From Reichenbachiella sp. (GTDB taxonomy: Bacteria > Bacteroidota > Bacteroidia > Cytophagales > Cyclobacteriaceae), in the NCBI RefSeq assembly GCF_033344935.1, contig NZ_JAWPMM010000001.1, positions 1,474,001 through 1,538,000 of the forward strand: a DNA stretch of 64,000 nt, in the 5' to 3' direction. Both the position numbers and the translations under genes were made by a program. Below, in pieces: positions 43,692 through 64,000 of this stretch. The notes beneath the pieces are model-generated. The model was given only the letters and a program-made list of their open reading frames with translations, searched no databases and was not told the origin of the DNA. Numbering within the stretch: position 1 is the stretch's first letter; each line of letters starts with the position of its first letter.

Positions 43692-44441
43692 ATGAAAAAC
43701 ACCATCGTATTATTCGCATTTCTTATCGCTTCCTGCAGCACCCCACTATTTGCTCAACAGGAAGTAGAGAGAGCATTAGGAGAATTTAAAGCCGTGTCCG
43801 TAGACTATGGTATCCAGGCAGAGTTGCTCAAGGGTACTTCCAATAAAGTGGTCCTGGTCATTAATGGAACTAAGGAGAATAATGTCACCTCTGAGATGGT
43901 AGACGGCGAGCTGCTTTTGACATTTAAAAACACCAAGAAGCTAGAAGGGGTATCTGTTAGCGCCGAAATATATACTGCGAGTGCTATAGAAGGAATTACC
44001 GTCAGCAATAAGTCCTCTCTCAGTGTGAAGGATGTACCAGCGGCCAGTAGTTTGAAATTAGTAGCAACGACAGGTGCTAAGCTAGATATGACCGCTAAAA
44101 CCCAATCGGCAATCGTGTCCGTAGGTAGATCAGCAAAAGTACAACTGGCCATGGAAGCGACTAAATTAGACGTCACCACCTCCGGAAAAGGAAAACTAGA
44201 GATTACGGGTAAAGCAGAAACGCTAAAAGTAAATTCGAATACATCGGGCGTGTACAAAGGCTACGGTCTACAATGCAAAACCCTAACAGCGCAAGCGCAT
44301 GGCAATGGCCGCGCCGAGGTTTCTGTTTCTGATTTGATAGTAGCCAATGTTGTAAGTGGTGGAAAAGTGATTTATAAGGGAGATCCGAAGCTGAAAGTAA
44401 ATGCCACCAGCTCTGGCACCGTCGAAAAAGCGGAGCAATGA
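43692..44441 (+). CDS. Head-GIN-domain (DUF2807) secreted protein
   Basis: 249 residues with a signal peptide (TIVLFAFLIASCSTPLFAQ; the internal Cys is not in a clean lipobox). The body is a repetitive beta-helix-like series (EGITVSNKSSLSVKDVPAASSLKL, ATTGAKLDMTAK, VTTSGKGKLEITGK, GYGLQCKTLTAQAHGNGRAEV), the hallmark of DUF2807 auto-adhesin-like proteins. It is likely on the cell surface. A decayed copy of its last 22 codons lies at 57335. Confidence 0.85.
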   Translation: MKNTIVLFAFLIASCSTPLFAQQEVERALGEFKAVSVDYGIQAELLKGTSNKVVLVINGTKENNVTSEMVDGELLLTFKNTKKLEGVSVSAEIYTASAIEGITVSNKSSLSVKDVPAASSLKLVATTGAKLDMTAKTQSAIVSVGRSAKVQLAMEATKLDVTTSGKGKLEITGKAETLKVNSNTSGVYKGYGLQCKTLTAQAHGNGRAEVSVSDLIVANVVSGGKVIYKGDPKLKVNATSSGTVEKAEQ

Positions 44442-56147: not shown

Positions 56148-57260
56148 ATGAGCGAGGTAGCTAGTAGAAATGTGATTGAAATGATGGATGTACCTTCACC
56201 GCATACTCATGTTTTTGAAAATGGCATCAATCATCCATTGCTTTACCTATGGGATGCTTGGTCATATATAGAAGGCGATACGATACATTTGTATTGTTTA
56301 TCTGTTTCTAGAATAAAGCCAGATGGAACACCCCTCCAACCAATTGAAAGGAATGATTTTCCTTTTCATATCAGACACTTTACTTCAAAAAACAATGGAA
56401 TCAGCTGGAAGGATGAGGGTTGTTTTTTAAATATTGATAGATGTGCTAAATTCTTCGACAGCCGTAATATTTGGAGTGGTTCAATATCTAGTTTACCTAC
56501 TGGGGAGAAGTTATTTGCGTTTACCATTCTTGAGCAAGTCGATGATAAACATCAATTTCTTCAAAACATAGCTTTAGCAAGTTCAAAGGACGGTTATGTG
56601 GTAGATGAGATTTTAAATTTTGAACTGTCATCTCCTCGAAAAGATTGGAAAAAGATAACCAGTAAAGGGTATTATCTAGGTAAGCCAAATCTATTGGGGA
56701 GTAATGACGGCGATGAAAATGGCCCAATTATGGCCTGGAGAGATCCTTTTATTTTTCTGAATAAGAATGCTGAGGTTAATCTGTTTTGGGGCGGTAAGAT
56801 AGCTCCTGCAAAAAGTGCGTTGGTCCGTGCGGAGCTTTATAAAAAAGGGACTTCTTATGTGATTTCTAAGCTTCATAAGCCAATGATAGTTCCAGATGGA
56901 AATGAATTCACACAGCTTGAGTTGCCTAAAGTCGTACATGATGAGGAAGGCGGTTTATTTTATCTAATGATCTCAACTTGTAACCGTATATATGAAGGGC
57001 AATCTGATGGCGAAGTTGATAAAGGAGTTAGAATGTATAAGTCTGAATCGCTAGATGGGCCATGGATTTCATTAGGTAAAAAAATCCTTGGGTCAGAGCA
57101 TTTGTTTGGGGCAACTGTACTAAGAACAGATTTCCAAAACAACCGATTATTGTGTGTTGCGCCCTATACAGATGCAGCTGAAGATAGGCTTAGCCTAACA
57201 TTTTCCTCTGTGTTTTACTTGTATCTTGATGACCTTAGGGTGGAGTTTTTGGAGTCTTGA
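56148..57260 (+). CDS. GH68-like glycoside hydrolase (clan GH-J)
   Basis: 370 residues. The three GH-J acidic residues are visible: Asp36 in LYLWDAWSY, Asp199 in the RDP motif AWRDPF, and Glu258 in LELPKV; NIWSGS is the second conserved block. There is no signal peptide, so it acts inside the cell. Most GH68 enzymes are secreted levan- or inulosucrases of 400-500 residues; this short cytoplasmic form probably hydrolyses or transfructosylates sucrose-derived sugars. It ends the operon, 6 bases after the kinase gene. Confidence 0.8.
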   Translation: MSEVASRNVIEMMDVPSPHTHVFENGINHPLLYLWDAWSYIEGDTIHLYCLSVSRIKPDGTPLQPIERNDFPFHIRHFTSKNNGISWKDEGCFLNIDRCAKFFDSRNIWSGSISSLPTGEKLFAFTILEQVDDKHQFLQNIALASSKDGYVVDEILNFELSSPRKDWKKITSKGYYLGKPNLLGSNDGDENGPIMAWRDPFIFLNKNAEVNLFWGGKIAPAKSALVRAELYKKGTSYVISKLHKPMIVPDGNEFTQLELPKVVHDEEGGLFYLMISTCNRIYEGQSDGEVDKGVRMYKSESLDGPWISLGKKILGSEHLFGATVLRTDFQNNRLLCVAPYTDAAEDRLSLTFSSVFYLYLDDLRVEFLES

Positions 57261-57334
57261 TATTTTAACCTTTTCGAGTATTGAATTATTCACCTGTTAA
57301 AAGTAAAAATTTGGGTGGCTAAAAAAGGGTTCGG

Positions 57335-57406
57335 ATTTATAAAGGAAATCCGATCTTGAAAGTAAATACCACAAGCTCCGGCATCTTGGAGAAGGCAGAG
57401 GATTGA
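57335..57406 (+). pseudogene. Decayed 3' fragment of a GIN-domain gene
   Basis: In one frame this reads YKGNPILKVNTTSSGILEKAED and a stop, nearly identical to the last residues of the intact protein at 43692 (YKGDPKLKVNATSSGTVEKAEQ and stop). The frame upstream is broken by a stop, and only GG remains of the preceding segment. A truncated second copy therefore lies at the edge of the transposon region. The remainder of 57261-57612 shows only the repeats noted below. Confidence 0.75.
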
Positions 57407-57519
57407 TGAGTAAAATTAGAGTCCACCACATTACCCCACCATTTTTTACTTTTTAGGATTTGGTTGAGATTTTAGACCAAAATCGCTCGATTTCAAGAAA
57501 AACATGTAACGGAGATTTG

Positions 57520-57563
57520 AAAATGTTATATATAATGAATTTGACGAAATAAAAATGTTATAT
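57520..57563. repeat. Direct repeats AAAATGTTATAT
   Basis: AAAATGTTATAT occurs at about 57520 and again at about 57552, each preceded by ATTTGA within 20 bases. Spacing about 32 bases. Reiterated short sites at a transposon edge are often transposase-binding sites; this is a suggestion only. Confidence 0.35.
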
Positions 57564-57612
57564 GATAAAAAAAACACATTTGGTACTCCAATAGTAATGA
57601 TGGCAGAGCAAG

Positions 57613-58575
57613 TTAGAATTTGCCAAGATTTAGATTAAAAAAATGATCGATGTGATCTTTCTGTCTTTTTCTTACACTTCTGGGATCTTTGACAATACAT
57701 ACCCTGAAATCTGCTAATCTCTTTATTAACTCTTCTTGATTGTTTATACCAATATATTGTAAATGTTCTGCAGGGAAATGACCACTTTTGGAATAGAAAT
57801 TATCAATGAAATTAAAATTTAGTGTTTCACTTGTAATGCGACTTGCAACTCCATCAAATAATAAAAGCGAATTAATAAAATATACTAAGTATTGAGTTTT
57901 CATGAATTTCCAGGTGTAATTCTTTTTGTAGTTACGAAATGCTCTAATTCTCCAAAGAGTCTGAATGAAAACTACAGATTCAGGGCAAAGATTTATTTTA
58001 TATTGAAGGCTAAGCGGAACAGTGGAATTGAAATGATAAATAGAAAACTTATTAAGTAACGTCATTGGATATCCATCATTAAATACAAGAGAAAACGCTA
58101 GCAAGGTTTCAAAAATGGGTTCAATTTGAGTTTTGAAATTATCATCAAAAATATAATCCCATGGATAATGAATGTATTTATTGAAGAATCTCTTAATTTC
58201 AGATCTGCATAATAGAGTTTTTCCAAATTTGGAAAAGTGGTTGTTTTTAGTTTTGCTTAATCTCACCTTTTTAAAGTACTCAATTAGCAAAGTTGGAGGA
58301 ATGTCGGGTTCTGAATCAGGAGCAATTTTCAAATTCCATGATGAATAAAGGCCTCTGTAAAATTCCAGCCACCATTTTGTTTGAAATTGCTCAACTCTGT
58401 CTAGAATATGAACCTTAAGTTCTAAATTTTTATTCTCAGCTCGAGTAATGAATTTGTTAATGTTGATGTAATTGTACTTAAGCTCCTTAGGAACAGATGA
58501 ATTCATGCTCAGTCCAATGTACAGTGGCCTTTCTGTAATTGGGTCATATACTTCAATTATGTTAACCTTAATCAA
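57613..58575 (-). CDS. Transposition-operon protein with GIY-YIG-like N-terminus
   Basis: 320 residues. The first about 85 fit the GIY-YIG nuclease layout: VY (9-10) and YIG (19-21) separated by nine residues, a helix-strand unit (NLELKVHILDRVE), then WWLEFYRGLYSSWN with the metal-ligand Glu (71) and terminal Asn (81). The helix arginine is not evident. The remaining 235 residues are of no family I know, aromatic-rich and basic at the end (RSVRKRQKDH). Its ATG overlaps the ATPase stop by 4 bases, so it belongs to the transposition machinery. It may supply second-strand cleavage, as TnsA does, or target choice. Confidence 0.55.
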   Translation of the reverse strand: MIKVNIIEVYDPITERPLYIGLSMNSSVPKELKYNYININKFITRAENKNLELKVHILDRVEQFQTKWWLEFYRGLYSSWNLKIAPDSEPDIPPTLLIEYFKKVRLSKTKNNHFSKFGKTLLCRSEIKRFFNKYIHYPWDYIFDDNFKTQIEPIFETLLAFSLVFNDGYPMTLLNKFSIYHFNSTVPLSLQYKINLCPESVVFIQTLWRIRAFRNYKKNYTWKFMKTQYLVYFINSLLLFDGVASRITSETLNFNFIDNFYSKSGHFPAEHLQYIGINNQEELIKRLADFRVCIVKDPRSVRKRQKDHIDHFFNLNLGKF

Positions 58576-59252
58576 ATTTCTAATCTTCCATTCAAGTAGG
58601 CGATAATATAGTTTATTGCAGTTCGCATATTATCTGAATTACGATATATCCAATGCCAGACTTTTTTTCTAGAGATATTGTACGAAACACATAATTTTTG
58701 AATGTCGTCAAAAGAAGGTGAAAGAAATTCATGCGTGTAATTTATTCTCGTAAGGACTTCTGAAATACCTGGCACGCCTTTATTTGACCAATATAGGAGT
58801 CTATCTTTAAAGTCTGGAGGAGAAGCTAATATTATTCCGCATTTATGACTTATGTTATCACTTATTTGGCGTAAATAAGGAATGAATTGTCTTTTAAAAT
58901 TTCCAATTTCATCTATGATTAATAGCTTTATTTGAGTTTTTTCAAGTATTTCGAATGATGCTTCTTCTATGAAGTTGTGAATTCTTTTTTGAGAATTATT
59001 AAAAATTAAGCTGAAATCTTCTCCGGATATTTGACAAAGTAGTTTTGCATAAAAATAACTCGCAGGCTCGGCGGGTTTGATATTTGTTACAAGAGTATCT
59101 GGATGAGTCCTTTGATAGTAATTGAATATGGTAGTTTTTCCTATTCCGGTACCGCCTACAAAGTAGTATAATTTATTCTCTAGTTTTGCCTCATCTAGTA
59201 GTTCTATTCCTTTTTTTAGGTTGTTTGTTTGAATAAGTCTAGGATTTTCCAT
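58572..59252 (-). CDS. TniB/TnsC-like AAA ATPase of the transposition operon
   Basis: 226 residues. Walker A is GGTGIGKTT (33-41), Walker B LLIIDEIG (110-117), with a sensor-like GIILASPP (about 136-143). Small ATPases of this type (TniB, TnsC, MuB) bind target DNA and deliver the transposase to it. It lies 12 bases after the transposase gene and overlaps the GIY-YIG-like gene by 4 bases. Confidence 0.85.
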   Translation of the reverse strand: MENPRLIQTNNLKKGIELLDEAKLENKLYYFVGGTGIGKTTIFNYYQRTHPDTLVTNIKPAEPASYFYAKLLCQISGEDFSLIFNNSQKRIHNFIEEASFEILEKTQIKLLIIDEIGNFKRQFIPYLRQISDNISHKCGIILASPPDFKDRLLYWSNKGVPGISEVLTRINYTHEFLSPSFDDIQKLCVSYNISRKKVWHWIYRNSDNMRTAINYIIAYLNGRLEI

Positions 59253-59264
59253 GAGAGGTTTGCT

Positions 59265-61175
59265 TTAGTTATTTTTACATGTTACTAGCTTCATGGAGGC
59301 TGATTGAACATGTATATTTTCCTGAAAGGCTAAGCTTTTGTTTATAATCTGGTTGTATAACTCTGATTCTTCTTCTTTACTCGGATAAGAATTTAATTGC
59401 ATCTGAGGATAGTTGGATAATATTTTTCTTGCGTAATCAGAGTTAAGGGAAATTCGTTTTTGAATTTTCTGTTTGTCACTTTTATTTCTATTCTTAACAT
59501 CAAATATTTCTTTTCTGTCTTCTGAACTAAGATGTTTTGGATCATAGGTGTTTATCCGTTTTTTATAAACTTCACTAATGAATTTATTTTCTAAATTGAA
59601 TAGATAAGCAATTTCAGGATCCTCAGGATTATAATAAACTTGTACATATGACTGATTGTGAATGATTTTTTGGTCCAGGTTCTTTATTCTATACTCTACT
59701 CCTGAGAGTGTAATTTTGGACCGATCAAGAAACCTTGTTTCACTTTGCCAAAATAGGTATGCAAATTCCTCTTTCGAAATACTTCGAGCATCCAATAGTA
59801 TTCCATTTTCAAACACTTTATTAGGGCTTTCGGAGTCAAACTCTAAATTATTCCATTTAGCGATATAGGAACTTATAAGTTCATTAGCTTTAGAGAGAAG
59901 AGTTAGTTTATGTCTGTTCGAATAAATTTCATTCACAATTTCTTTTTTGAGTCGATGGAAATCTGATTTAGCACTATTGCCAAGACCAGCATAATATTTA
60001 TTTTGGTAACATATTTGAGAATGAAAATTTTTAAAAAAGACTTCGATTGTTCCTTTTCTTTGAGGTTCATTTGGTTCATGTACTAAGAACAGCGTGCCAT
60101 GACGTTCTGTGATTTTCATCATAAATGAAGAGAAATTATGGCCTATGTGGGAAGACGATTTATCAATTACTACTGATGAGGGAATTATTGAATGATTATC
60201 AATTAATTGTCTGAATGCTCCTATGATCATTTCTGAATTTTCAGTGTATCCATATGATCCTCCAACTATTTTATTTGAATAGACATCAATAATTACATAA
60301 AATTTAACGTAGACTACATTGTCATTTTCTTCATCGTAAAAGGGTATTTGAAATCTAGAACCATCAGCCTCTACAACTTGAAACTTGTAATTAGTTTTGC
60401 GTCTTAGGATGTAATCTTGAAAATGTTTCTTATACCAGTCTGCCCCATAAATAGCAATTCCATATAAGTTTCTGACTGATTTTGGTAAGTAAGATTGAAT
60501 TGTTGATTTATGAATTTTTCTTTTATTGTCAAAGAATTTTTGTTCTAAAAACTTTGCTATCTGTCTACAACTATGTCCTTGACCATGTAAGAAGTGAATG
60601 ACAGTTTCTATTTCTAAAGTGATTAATCTATTTGATCTAGCTTTTCCTTTTTTATTATGTCCAATTATTTTTTCAAAAGGAATATTTTTTTTTGCGGCAT
60701 CTTCTAAGCGGTTTAATATTCTTGAGAGAGATGATATATTACTGAAATACGAAATTTTAAAATTTCTGAGGTTTTTGAATAATTTGTCTAGTCGATAATT
60801 TTTTTTATATCTATAGTGCCATGTAGTATTGAGTATAGCATGTTTTCTGGAAATTTTTATTAAATCTGTCCCTGAATATTGAGGATATTTCGAGAAATTA
60901 AAATTGAAATCATTGTATGCTAGCTCCAAATCATTAATGAAAAGTAAGTCTTCATGATCTAAGGTGTCTGTATTAATTATGTTGATTTTACCAATCTGAT
61001 TAATTATCTGAGTTGGAATTGAGTCAATCTCTATGACAAATTCATTTGAAGTATGGTCTCTTTCAGCAATCCAGGAATTTGAGTTTTTCTCAAAGAACTC
61101 ATTTAATCCTTTTCTAACAATGTGCTCATCAATGCCGAAAGAGACAAGTTGAGAAACTGTATATCTACTCTCCAT
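59265..61175 (-). CDS. Mu/TnsB/TniA-type DDE transposase
   Basis: 636 residues from ATG 61175 (MESRYTVSQLVSFGIDEH; a start 13 codons earlier is possible). N-terminal DNA-binding HTH regions (about 5-45 and 170-240; SCRQIAKFLEQKFFDNKRKIHKSTIQSYL) precede the rve catalytic core: Asp271 (VVEADGSRF), Asp338 (VVIDKSSSH) and Glu378 (PQRKGTIEVFFKNF). A Mu-type C-terminal domain follows (SGVEYRIKNLDQKI). It is full length with all catalytic residues. It needs the ATPase encoded next. Confidence 0.9.
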   Translation of the reverse strand: MESRYTVSQLVSFGIDEHIVRKGLNEFFEKNSNSWIAERDHTSNEFVIEIDSIPTQIINQIGKINIINTDTLDHEDLLFINDLELAYNDFNFNFSKYPQYSGTDLIKISRKHAILNTTWHYRYKKNYRLDKLFKNLRNFKISYFSNISSLSRILNRLEDAAKKNIPFEKIIGHNKKGKARSNRLITLEIETVIHFLHGQGHSCRQIAKFLEQKFFDNKRKIHKSTIQSYLPKSVRNLYGIAIYGADWYKKHFQDYILRRKTNYKFQVVEADGSRFQIPFYDEENDNVVYVKFYVIIDVYSNKIVGGSYGYTENSEMIIGAFRQLIDNHSIIPSSVVIDKSSSHIGHNFSSFMMKITERHGTLFLVHEPNEPQRKGTIEVFFKNFHSQICYQNKYYAGLGNSAKSDFHRLKKEIVNEIYSNRHKLTLLSKANELISSYIAKWNNLEFDSESPNKVFENGILLDARSISKEEFAYLFWQSETRFLDRSKITLSGVEYRIKNLDQKIIHNQSYVQVYYNPEDPEIAYLFNLENKFISEVYKKRINTYDPKHLSSEDRKEIFDVKNRNKSDKQKIQKRISLNSDYARKILSNYPQMQLNSYPSKEEESELYNQIINKSLAFQENIHVQSASMKLVTCKNN

Positions 61176-61185
61176 GATTAATTTA

Positions 61186-61255
61186 ATTGTCTTAAAGGTA
61201 ATATATGTAAACAATAGGATAAATAAAAATTATATTATATGTCTTTTAAGACAAT
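61186..61255. repeat. Inverted repeat in the transposase/XRE intergenic region
   Basis: ATTGTCTTAAAG (61186-61197; first bases overlap the upstream side of the start) and CTTTTAAGACAAT (61243-61255) are inverted copies about 46 bases apart. Placed between divergent transposase and XRE genes, they are likely operators for the XRE regulator. Confidence 0.45.
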
Positions 61256-61369
61256 AAAATATTACTTTTATTTTTACGTAATTTGTAAATGTGAAATTTT
61301 ATTAATGCTAAACTGAACGAATAGATAAATTGGCTTTGATCAGCTATTTTTTTACCTTTATATATAGAT

Positions 61370-61741
61370 ATGAGTTTTGGATTGTTATTAAGAGAAGCGC
61401 GATCCTTGAAGAGGATTTCAAGAAAAGAATTGGCAGAAAGATCAGGGGTATCTTATGTACAATTGACTAAATATGAAGACGAAAAAGCTCAACCTACATA
61501 CCCAGTTATTGAGAAAATAATAAAAGCACTCGGGTTACCCAGAGGTTATTTTTTCTACAATAAAGAATATTATCAAGAGTTGGATGCAGTAATTGAATCC
61601 AAAGTTGGAAGGTGGCAACAGCTCAAACCTTACAAAAAGACTGAATTTTTATTATTGATTGACAGCTTTTTTGGCAATTGTGAAAAGACACATCTTATAG
61701 ATCAATTAAAAGAGTCAGAAGCCCCAAGTTGGGAGTATTAG
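61370..61741 (+). CDS. XRE-family transcriptional regulator
   Basis: 123 residues. An N-terminal HTH (about 3-60; LLLREARSLKRISRKELAERSGVSYVQLTKYEDEKAQPTYPVIEKIIKAL) is followed by a helical tail (LKPYKKTEFLLLIDSFFG) of unknown role. It is divergent from the transposase and probably controls it and itself through the inverted repeats between them. Confidence 0.88.
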   Translation: MSFGLLLREARSLKRISRKELAERSGVSYVQLTKYEDEKAQPTYPVIEKIIKALGLPRGYFFYNKEYYQELDAVIESKVGRWQQLKPYKKTEFLLLIDSFFGNCEKTHLIDQLKESEAPSWEY

Positions 61742-62598: not shown

Positions 62599-62760
62599 GA
62601 AGTATTCTTTATTGTATCACAATTCGGTCAATTCATAGAACCAAATGCAGTCCAATGGTTAGAAGGGCAAGCAATTGGGGACGGTCCCATCAAAAGCCTG
62701 TTTAATACGAAGAAAAGAGATATCCTCTATAGGTTAGCCTTTGTTAATAATATTTGCTGA
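62599..62760 (+). pseudogene. Possible coding relic
   Basis: A 53-codon open stretch between two stops, without a start codon, reads as plausible protein (QFIEPNAVQWLEGQAIGDG, then PIKSLFNTKKRDILYRLAF). Its base composition is richer in G and C than the surrounding DNA. It may be the 3' remnant of a lost gene. The rest of 62446-62726 holds nothing I can recognise. Confidence 0.25.
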
Positions 62761-63242
62761 TTATTAATAATACTTTGTTGTAACTCTTCAATCTCTTTTG
62801 ATCTATGAATGATGTCATTTAAAATTTCAATCCGTTGGTTTTGAATTTGAACAATAATCGAATCCCTTTCGCCTTTTAGCATTAATATGGTAGCACGTCT
62901 TATTTGTTGAATAGACACATTCACTGTATTTGAATCATCAGGATTGAAAAATTCTAATTTAATAGCAAGACTATCAGCCAAGGAATTGACGGCTAATATT
63001 GAATCTTGTAGACCATCGATATCTTCCTCATATTGCTTTTTGATTGCCTGTATTTTCGCAAGAGTATTTTTGCCTTGTGTTTCTTCTAACAACTCAATTT
63101 GAGAATTTAAATTTTCAATGGTGCTATTCTTGATAGTAGAATGGAGATTATACATCATGATCATGTAGGTAATCATAGTTGGCAAACCTAATATTATTAC
63201 AGCACGATAGATATTTTTCAGATGTTTCAGTTTGAATTTCAT
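62727..63242 (-). CDS. Membrane-anchored coiled-coil protein of unknown function
   Basis: 171 residues. One N-terminal membrane helix (about 12-31; IYRAVIILGLPTMITYMIMM) is followed by a long helical domain rich in Glu, Gln, Ile and Leu (LNSQIELLEETQGKNTLAKIQAIKKQYEEDIDGLQDSI and on), predicted to form coiled coils. No family recognised. It lies 301 bases from the RNase H-like gene, in divergent orientation. Confidence 0.55.
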   Translation of the reverse strand: MKFKLKHLKNIYRAVIILGLPTMITYMIMMYNLHSTIKNSTIENLNSQIELLEETQGKNTLAKIQAIKKQYEEDIDGLQDSILAVNSLADSLAIKLEFFNPDDSNTVNVSIQQIRRATILMLKGERDSIIVQIQNQRIEILNDIIHRSKEIEELQQSIINNQQILLTKANL

Positions 63243-63284: not shown

Positions 63285-63510
63285 TTTCGGAAAAACGATT
63301 ATTTGAGTTCCAGAATATTGTGATCTCATATATTAAACCGGAAAGTAATTCATCTTCTCAAACCTTTAAATAGAGTTTGAAAAAACATTGGAGTGTAATT
63401 AAATCAAACTTTGTTTTAACGAACTAGTTTTCCGAACTTAGCAGACTTAATCCGGACATTGGATATCTAATAAATTGATAGTTCGAAAAAAGGATCGTTA
63501 AATCGAACTC
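63285..63510. repeat. Three related ~27-bp repeats around TTCGGAAAA...CGTTA
   Basis: Copies lie at about 63286-63310 (plus), 63411-63438 (minus) and 63480-63508 (plus). Common elements are TTCG(G/A)AAAA followed after 4-6 bases by CGTTA or CGATTA. The second and third face each other. They lie upstream of the RNase H-like gene and could be regulator or transposase binding sites. Confidence 0.4.
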
Positions 63511-63544: not shown

Positions 63545-64000
63545 ATGTCATATAACCCGTATGCTATATATGTGAGATGTGATGGTTCTATGAAACCTAA
63601 AGAAAAGGGCAATCCTGGAGGCATAGGCTTTTGGATTGAATTCCCGGAATCTAGCGGTTTAGAAATTATCGAGGAATATGAGGGTGTTTTTACAAAAACA
63701 TCAATTCATAGATTAGAGATTTATGCTATAATTCGAGCTATGGAAGGTGTAATAAATGCAGTAGAACAGAACCCAATAGTCCTTAAGGGTTGTCCAGTAA
63801 AGATTATTACAGATAGGTTTTCTCTTAAGGGAGACTCTTTGACCAATCCATATGCAATAAGAGATTGGCGTAGTAATGGATGGAAGAACTTTGAAGGGAA
63901 GCCGATTAAGGATAAGGACCTTCTTGATAAGCTTGACAAGACTCGGAAAAAATTGTCTGATGTAGTTTGCGGCAGGGTGGATATTGAATGGCGCAGAAGA
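63545..64000 (+). CDS. RNase H-like protein (partial, runs off right edge)
   Basis: 152 residues are visible. The RNase H fold motifs are present in order: Asp13 with glycines (VRCDGSMKP, GNPGGIGFW), Glu58 in IHRLEIYAIIRAM and Asp in IITDRFSL, the usual D-E-D arrangement, with a WKNFEGKPIKDKDLLDKLD segment typical of RNase HI. The final His/Asp lies beyond the edge. It may be a free RNase H-like nuclease in an accessory or defence cassette, or the N-terminus of a larger protein. Start chosen at the first ATG after the repeats. Confidence 0.7.
   Translation, partial: MSYNPYAIYVRCDGSMKPKEKGNPGGIGFWIEFPESSGLEIIEEYEGVFTKTSIHRLEIYAIIRAMEGVINAVEQNPIVLKGCPVKIITDRFSLKGDSLTNPYAIRDWRSNGWKNFEGKPIKDKDLLDKLDKTRKKLSDVVCGRVDIEWRRR

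What the first reader, a model, noticed from the sequence alone, without database searches (positions are those of the whole stretch)
57613..61741. Tn7/Mu-like transposition operon with a GIY-YIG-like protein in the third position
The sequence shows a tightly coupled operon of DDE transposase (D271, D338, E378), AAA ATPase (Walker A and B intact) and a 320-residue protein whose first 85 residues fit the GIY-YIG layout. Known relatives pair the first two with TnsA (a PD-(D/E)XK nuclease) and/or TniQ/TnsD; none is visible here. I infer that the GIY-YIG-like protein takes over donor-strand cleavage or target recognition, a transposon design I do not recall being described.
Basis: partly seen in the sequence, partly recalled or inferred. 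Interest (0 to 1): 0.72.

Follow-up and report, generated by a model that had tools for sequence, protein, structure and literature searches.

The report
Copy-in transposon carrying Gabija phage defence
The three genes belong to a complete 17.6-kilobase jumping element that carries an antiviral defence system; its first two genes are of a known kind, and the third is an orphan gene whose proposed nuclease role is not supported.

Summary
The operon is real. A Mu/TnsB-type DDE transposase, a TnsC/TniB-type ATPase and an orphan 320-aa protein (P3) sit at one end of a 17,582-bp transposon that the window cuts off (G000:C1:1531505-1549086, window 57505 onward). Its end sequence (TGTAACGG/TGTAGCGG...) occurs nowhere else in the genome, and a congener holds the empty site. 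Beyond the window lie a serine resolvase and a Gabija system. No TnsA plus a resolvase is the published prediction for replicative transposition, so P3 need not cut the donor strand. In 9 of 9 related transposon loci (transposase about 23-31% identical) the pair occurs without a P3-like gene. The GIY-YIG reading is unproven: no profile hit, profile comparison equalled by 3, 6 and 8 of 50 shuffles, poor models (pLDDT 40 and 44). I-TevI ranked first for one model, without significance, and not among the printed rows for the other. By my anchoring the catalytic Arg and Glu are missing. P3 is a genuine gene, overlapping the ATPase stop, with no detected relative. The element is a new variant of a known kind; a target-selecting or regulatory role for P3 stays open.

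The parts
57501..57504 (.). candidate target-site duplication AACA, left copy (right copy at G000:C1:1549087-1549090, outside the window); 5 or 6 bp (within AAACAT) if the ends are drawn one base further in
   Evidence: flanks match the empty site in congener G1008
57505..57530 (+). left terminal inverted repeat TGTAACGGAGATTTGAAAATGTTATA; right partner at G000:C1:1549061-1549086 (minus)
   Evidence: only two sites in the genome with up to 3 mismatches, none in 7 congeners
57520..57563 (+). two copies of AAAATGTTATAT (57520, 57552), candidate transposase-binding repeats; the right end has two near-copies as well
57613..58575 (-). P3, orphan 320-aa third protein, start overlapping the ATPase stop
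58572..59252 (-). TnsC/TniB/MuB-type AAA ATPase, 226 aa (Walker A GGTGIGKT, Walker B LLIIDE, read by eye)
59265..61175 (-). TnsB/MuA-type DDE transposase, 636 aa from ATG (649 aa from the TTG at 61214)
61370..61741 (+). Cro/C1-type HTH regulator, divergent from the operon; an HTH gene also sits upstream of the operon in L043 (Pfam) and, by eye only, in L044
61819..62445 (-). hydrophobic, probably membrane protein, 208 aa, cargo or unknown
62727..63242 (-). 171-aa protein with N-terminal hydrophobic stretch, cargo or unknown
63374..63509 (.). candidate res site: inverted pairs AGTTTGA..TCAAACT (63374-63410) and AGTTCGA..TCGAACT (63480-63509) upstream of the RNase H-resolvase genes
   Evidence: repeats, no chance control run; function inferred
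63545..64000 (+). RNase H-like gene, runs out of the window (273 aa, to G000:C1:1538366), followed directly by the serine resolvase 1538367-1538930 and by GajA 1539087-1540886 and GajB 1540864-1542657

Best explanation
The finding is the left-end transposition module of a 17.6-kb mobile element of the TnsA-less, resolvase-bearing grade of the Mu/Tn552/Tn5053/Tn7 superfamily. The DDE transposase binds the repeats at the TGTA...TACA ends, nicks the 3' ends and joins them to a target presented by the ATPase. Because nothing cuts the 5' strands, insertion gives a cointegrate, which the serine resolvase separates at a res site next to its gene. The cargo is a Gabija anti-phage system. P3 is an accessory protein made with the ATPase; most likely it modulates the ATPase or target choice, or is cargo, and it is not needed for the chemistry. 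Shown: gene content, ends, empty site, cargo. Inferred: the replicative route, the res site and every role of P3.
For: Ends and empty site. Resolvase (Pfam Resolvase 6.9e-41). Gabija (GajA 2.7e-165, GajB 7e-207). Nine related transposon loci with transposase plus ATPase, a serine recombinase of resolvase type beside the pair in 8 of 9 (the ninth, L048, is cut off by its contig end), and no P3-like ORF among 210 ORFs (best E 0.058). In L012 and L013 a candidate element end (TGTA[AG]NGG plus subterminal repeat) lies 72 and 50 bp after the ATPase stop, leaving no room for a third gene. Tree: the window lies in a 9-row group (94/96) with seven transposon-type rows and one phage-type row (L011), apart from five MuA prophage rows and two TnsB rows. 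Published rule that tnsA loss plus resolvase gain predicts replicative transposition, and that Gabija is a common cargo: PMC8649781, passages.
Against: The window transposase is far from every relative found (at most 31% over a segment, end branch 2.26, its group not starred and holding one Mu-like phage row), so shared mechanism is assumed. One copy only; no cointegrate or movement seen. The resolvase is about 3.2 kb from the transposase gene and could be cargo. The target duplication is ambiguous (4 to 6 bp). Left ends of L012 and L013 and both ends of L043, L044, L045 and L049 were not found. Some relatives are imperfect: L045 has a 152-aa ATPase frame, L046 a transposase in two frames, L047 and L048 begin inside the transposase.
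Confidence: 0.75

Rival explanations
1. One reading: P3 is a GIY-YIG nuclease that cuts the donor 5' strands in place of TnsA, giving cut-and-paste transposition.
For: YIG at residues 19-21; the secondary structure in both low-confidence models begins strand-strand-helix-strand-helix; I-TevI is rank 1 for the domain model, and several GIY-YIG or intron-endonuclease entries are among the 50 viral rows printed.
Against: No profile hit. Profile comparison to three GIY-YIG profiles was equalled by 3, 6 and 8 of 50 shuffles. Foldseek E 1.0 and TM 0.29 for I-TevI; the full-length model ranks APOBEC3H first, also not significant, and none of the 50 of 132 rows printed is I-TevI. Anchored on YIG and on W-[IL], the I-TevI Arg27 and Glu75 positions are Pro29 and Thr66. 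The element carries a resolvase and 9 of 9 relatives have no P3-like gene.
Confidence: 0.05
2. P3 is a new kind of target selector occupying the tniQ position: it binds a DNA feature, such as the terminator-like region upstream of mraZ, and recruits the ATPase.
For: Position after the ATPase gene and the TTGA overlap; the insertion lies in an intergenic gap next to a terminator-like hairpin (read by eye).
Against: One insertion only; relatives have no such gene; no DNA-binding domain was found by profiles.
Confidence: 0.3
3. P3 is a diverged TniQ or TnsA.
For: Operon position only.
Against: Pfam finds TnsA 2.3e-15, TniQ 1.4e-17 and TnsD 1.8e-69 in another locus of this genome but neither in P3; P3 has three cysteines, too few for a TniQ-type zinc finger (recalled feature). 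No profile-profile comparison with TniQ or TnsA was run.
Confidence: 0.07
4. P3 is simply cargo (for example part of a defence or addiction gene set) that sits behind the ATPase.
For: In relatives L046 and L048 the genes after the ATPase are unrelated cargo; P3 is an orphan in these searches.
Against: The overlapping start argues for co-translation with the ATPase.
Confidence: 0.3

Closest known systems
Tn552 / Tn5053-grade transposons (TnsB plus TnsC, resolvase, no TnsA; Tn5053 is in clade 3 of Benler et al. 2021, PMC8649781, passages)
   Same: DDE transposase, AAA ATPase, serine resolvase, subterminal repeats at both ends, TGT...ACA ends, no TnsA, defence cargo
   Different: No TniQ (73-97% of elements per clade have tnsD/tniQ in that survey); orphan P3 in its place; no close sequence relative found. 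Tn552 and Tn5053 themselves were not compared by sequence here
Bacteroidota/Ignavibacteria two-gene transposons found here (L012 Pedobacter plasmid, L013 Emticicia plasmid, L043 Fluviicola, L044 Ignavibacteriaceae)
   Same: Transposase, ATPase and serine resolvase; candidate ends of L012, L013, L046 and L048 begin TGTA(G/A)NGG with a repeat, as in the window
   Different: No P3; transposase about 23-31% identical; several have a 174-367-aa upstream protein, to which no ORF of the window element was matched by me
Tn7 (TnsABCDE), a copy of which is elsewhere in this genome (L103)
   Same: TnsB- and TnsC-like core
   Different: Has TnsA, TnsD/TniQ and TnsE; distant transposase
Tsy elements (tyrosine recombinase, HTH, TnsF, GIY-YIG nuclease; PMC10293859, passages read)
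   Same: A GIY-YIG protein as an accessory transposition gene
   Different: Not a DDE element; its GIY-YIG gene is reported as helpful but not essential

Membership tests
TnsA-less, resolvase-bearing Tn7-like (Tn552/Tn5053-grade) transposon | DDE transposase plus AAA ATPase in one operon | tested here: met
TnsA-less, resolvase-bearing Tn7-like (Tn552/Tn5053-grade) transposon | inverted ends with subterminal repeats | tested here: met
TnsA-less, resolvase-bearing Tn7-like (Tn552/Tn5053-grade) transposon | resolvase gene within the element, no TnsA | tested here: met
   resolvase. TnsA: no Pfam match in the operon and other element proteins scanned
TnsA-less, resolvase-bearing Tn7-like (Tn552/Tn5053-grade) transposon | TniQ (usual in Tn5053-type elements) | tested here: not met
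   the only TniQ match in this genome is in the Tn7 copy L103
TnsA-less, resolvase-bearing Tn7-like (Tn552/Tn5053-grade) transposon | 5-bp (or 6-7-bp, recalled) target duplication | tested here: inconclusive
   4 to 6 bp fit
TnsA-less, resolvase-bearing Tn7-like (Tn552/Tn5053-grade) transposon | replicative transposition through cointegrates | not testable with these tools
   needs an assay
TnsA-less, resolvase-bearing Tn7-like (Tn552/Tn5053-grade) transposon | sequence kinship to Tn552 or Tn5053 transposases | not tested
   neither reference sequence was fetched
GIY-YIG superfamily (P3) | significant profile match | tested here: not met
   Power is limited: of three true GIY-YIG proteins against I-TevI, SegB passes (z 6.6) and SegG and I-TevII fail
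GIY-YIG superfamily (P3) | strand-strand-helix-strand-helix fold | tested here: inconclusive
   right order in both models, pLDDT 40 and 44
GIY-YIG superfamily (P3) | catalytic Tyr, Arg and Glu | tested here: not met
   hand anchoring to I-TevI (sequence fetched; catalytic numbering recalled); YIG Tyr19 is kept, Arg27 and Glu75 sites are Pro29 and Thr66; conditional on the fold
TniQ / TnsA (P3) | Pfam match | tested here: not met
   positive control
Gabija | adjacent GajA (OLD/TOPRIM) and GajB (UvrD) genes | tested here: met
Mu-like prophage | MuB with N-terminal HTH followed by early phage genes | tested here: not met
   226-aa ATPase, P-loop at about residue 34; in the phage-type loci L025, L051 and L052 the ATPase has 276-291 aa and phage-like genes follow (read by eye)

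The most novel reading that the evidence does not exclude
P3 founds a new class of transposition accessory: a catalytically dead GIY-YIG-type DNA-binding domain fused to a helical domain that took the TniQ position, reads the target and recruits the TnsC-type ATPase in a TniQ-free copy-in transposon.
Probability: 0.12. Interest if true: 0.65.

Novelty: new variant of a known kind. Interest (0 to 1): 0.35.

Why it matters
The case gives a fully bounded, TnsA- and TniQ-free Bacteroidota transposon with an empty site and a defence cargo, and candidate end sequences for a group of two-gene elements seen here on plasmids and chromosomes. If P3 chose targets, it would add a selector unrelated to TniQ or CRISPR; as it stands it is one orphan gene. 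The lesson for the scan is that the third gene looked essential only because the resolvase lay outside the window.

Tried and rejected
RteC idea: I read an RteC-like pattern into the C-terminal half of P3. Profile comparison with four RteC proteins scored 14.7, and at least eight of 60 shuffles scored above that (one search prints its top eight), so I dropped it. The same comparison does not make the upstream proteins of the relatives RteC.

Weak P3 hits: 7 of 395 phylum genomes besides the own one at E 0.002 to 0.008. I read five of the seven loci and saw unrelated genes or antisense frames; L007 and L008 were not read. One hit of 251 order genomes (G407, E 6.4e-4, with an internal stop) was not read. 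Of 1070 ORFs of 58 fetched loci, two scored E 2e-4 and 0.004 with P3; both lie in loci that the P3 search itself had picked (L005, L003), and L005's is an unrelated gene by eye. A 101-aa frame in L052 (E 0.0047 in a tiny set) is treated as chance. Best family or PDB matches of P3 or its parts were E 0.025 (PDB, a reductoisomerase), 0.031 (a PHROG of unknown function) and 0.079 (Plexin_RBD), all taken as chance. Pair alignment of the P3 N-terminus to I-TevI gave z 0.45, and 19 of 70 unrelated N-termini scored as high.

Searches with the transposase in viral contigs found nothing, P3 likewise. Locus L050 (meant for G717) showed no transposase frame and was dropped. Gene order was not read for the seven search loci L036-L042, for L023 (cut from the output), for the third plasmid or for the phage records. 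Inverted ends of L043, L044, L045 and L049 were not found; L047 was not tested there. The tree is weakly resolved around the window. The candidate res repeats had no chance control.

Full report
What is there. On the minus strand at 57613-61214 lie a DDE transposase, an AAA ATPase and a 320-aa protein, P3. Pfam names the second TniB/AAA and gives the first a Mu-transposase C-terminal domain; PHROGs gives transposase (5e-38) and DNA transposition protein (1e-16). P3 begins with TTG overlapping the ATPase stop, has the codon use of its neighbours (above 200 of 200 mononucleotide shuffles) and an open length with chance 9e-12. It is a real gene.

Where the element ends. GC falls from about 38-40% to about 31-33% at window 57000-58000 and stays low (29-35%, with one kilobase at 38.5%) to genome position 1549000, about 11 kb past the window. 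Comparing both edges gives an imperfect inverted repeat, TGTAACGGAGATTTGAAAATGTTATA at 57505 and its partner ending at G000:C1:1549086, each end with two AAAATGTTATA copies. With up to three mismatches the sequence occurs twice in this genome and in none of 7 congeners, and the backward-read control pattern has no match. In congener G1008 the left flank (82% identical) and the right flank (91%) meet in one stretch: the empty site. The flanks share AAACAT, so the target duplication is AACA with TGT...ACA ends, or 5 to 6 bp with shifted ends. The element is 17,582 bp. The neighbouring genes look like mraZ and rsmH of the division cluster on the right and a sugar-use operon on the left; these names are recalled from the protein sequences, not taken from a call.

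What it carries. From left: the operon; a divergent HTH regulator; two small proteins, the first probably in the membrane; an RNase H-like protein; a serine resolvase (6.9e-41); GajA (2.7e-165) and GajB (7e-207), a Gabija system; two small proteins, one with a weak PADLOC match (LmuB, 2.4e-5); and a 1347-aa protein without Pfam or PADLOC match. Upstream of the RNase H gene are inverted pairs that look like resolvase subsites; that they are a res site is inference.

Relatives of the pair. One transposase copy is in the genome. Besides the own genome it matches 2 of 394 phylum genomes at 1e-10, 6 of 290 order genomes at 1e-5 and, as a four-row profile, 12 of 394 class genomes at 1e-15; the genome-contig scan gave six loci, the plasmids three. 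I read the gene order of nine transposon-type loci: L012, L013, L043, L044, L045 (the same contig as L010/L024), L046, L047, L048 and L049. All nine have the ATPase next to the transposase (ATPases 22-31% identical to the window's). A serine recombinase of resolvase type follows the ATPase in five (L043, L044, L045, L047, L049), sits divergently upstream of the transposase in three (L012, L013, L046), and could not be seen in L048, whose contig begins inside the transposase. None of the 210 ORFs around them resembles P3 (best E 0.058). In L012 and L013 a candidate right end comes 72 and 50 bp after the ATPase stop. The end rule TGTA[AG]NGG plus an internal repeat flagged 8 of 41 motif matches: the window's two ends, a read-through of its right end, and one or two candidate ends each in L012, L013, L046 and L048. 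Eight other loci that I read are Mu-like prophages by eye (L020, L021, L022, L026, L027; L025, L051, L052). In the tree the window sits with seven transposon-type rows and one phage-type row (94/96, not starred), apart from five MuA rows and two TnsB rows.

P3. Searches gave no credible match: whole protein in Pfam, NCBIfam, PHROGs, PADLOC and plasmids, first 95 residues in Pfam, PHROGs, PDB, phages and plasmids, and six-peptide scans for close relatives in 84,980 species genomes and IMG/VR. Genome searches gave only chance-level hits. Two AlphaFold models without alignment have pLDDT 40 and 44; both show strand, strand, helix, strand, helix in the first 80 residues, the GIY-YIG order. Foldseek with the domain model put I-TevI first, fourth and twelfth in PDB, with E 1.0 to 3.7 and TM 0.29-0.30; with viral models some GIY-YIG or intron-endonuclease entries appear among many others, none first; the full-length model put APOBEC3H first (E 0.34), and no I-TevI chain is among the 50 of 132 rows printed. 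None is significant. Profile comparison of the first 95 residues to 23 Bacteroidota GIY-YIG proteins, to two T4 ones and to both together was equalled by 3, 6 and 8 of 50 shuffles. In pair alignment P3 does not stand out against I-TevI (613 of 2000 shuffles as high); of three true GIY-YIG proteins SegB does (z 6.6) and SegG and I-TevII do not. If the fold is right, anchoring on YIG and on the W-[IL] of the second helix puts Pro29 at the Arg27 site and Thr66 at the Glu75 site of I-TevI, and Ile or a shifted Tyr at the first Tyr (catalytic numbering recalled). So the evidence allows a GIY-YIG-like fold, but does not point to a nuclease.

Mechanism. TnsA-less elements with a resolvase are predicted to move replicatively (PMC8649781, passages); the same survey found tnsA in only 28% of its clade 3, tnsD/tniQ in 73-97% of elements per clade, and the Gabija nuclease in 338 elements. 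The window element fits this with TniQ absent. The chemistry would need transposase, ATPase and resolvase; P3 is extra. Its overlap with the ATPase gene suggests a link with the ATPase or target choice, which is not tested.

Literature. Searching for Tn7-like with GIY-YIG gave three papers, one relevant (PMC10293859, passages): Tsy elements, moved by tyrosine recombinases, have a GIY-YIG gene that helps but is not essential. A search with TnsB, TnsC, transposon and GIY-YIG (three of four terms) found 99 papers, of which I saw ten listed; three of these hold the word GIY-YIG. Searches with resolvase, Tn552 and TniQ terms gave few or no papers. I saw no DDE element with a GIY-YIG third gene in these listings; only open-licence papers were searchable.

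Verdict.

Noticed in passing
G000:C1:4687653-4695469 (L103): A separate TnsA-TnsB-TnsC-TnsD/TniQ-TnsE gene set with no cargo gene between it and two flanking RidA-like genes (RidA recalled from sequence); its ends were not found; ridA may be its attachment site.
   Followed up: partly
G000:C1:1548734-1548860 (right end of the element, beyond the window): Repeats GGGGAAGTGTACAT and GGGAAAGTGTACGT inside the right end resemble the GTGGAGGAAAGTGG repeat before the mraZ-like gene about 330 bp further on; whether they bind MraZ is unknown.
   Followed up: no
G000:C1:1544013-1548056: A 1347-aa cargo protein without Pfam or PADLOC match next to Gabija; possible unrecognised defence gene.
   Followed up: no
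L043:8348-8872, L044:2093-3196, L010:206-1159, L049:3365-4363: A poorly conserved 174-367-aa protein upstream of the transposase recurs in related transposons; no Pfam match above cut-off; P3 does not resemble it.
   Followed up: partly
window 44369-44441 and 57334-57406: A 73-bp stretch just outside the element is repeated at 78% identity elsewhere in the window.
   Followed up: no
window 63545-64000 onward: An RNase H-like gene ends at the base before the resolvase gene starts, an unusual partner for a resolvase.
   Followed up: no
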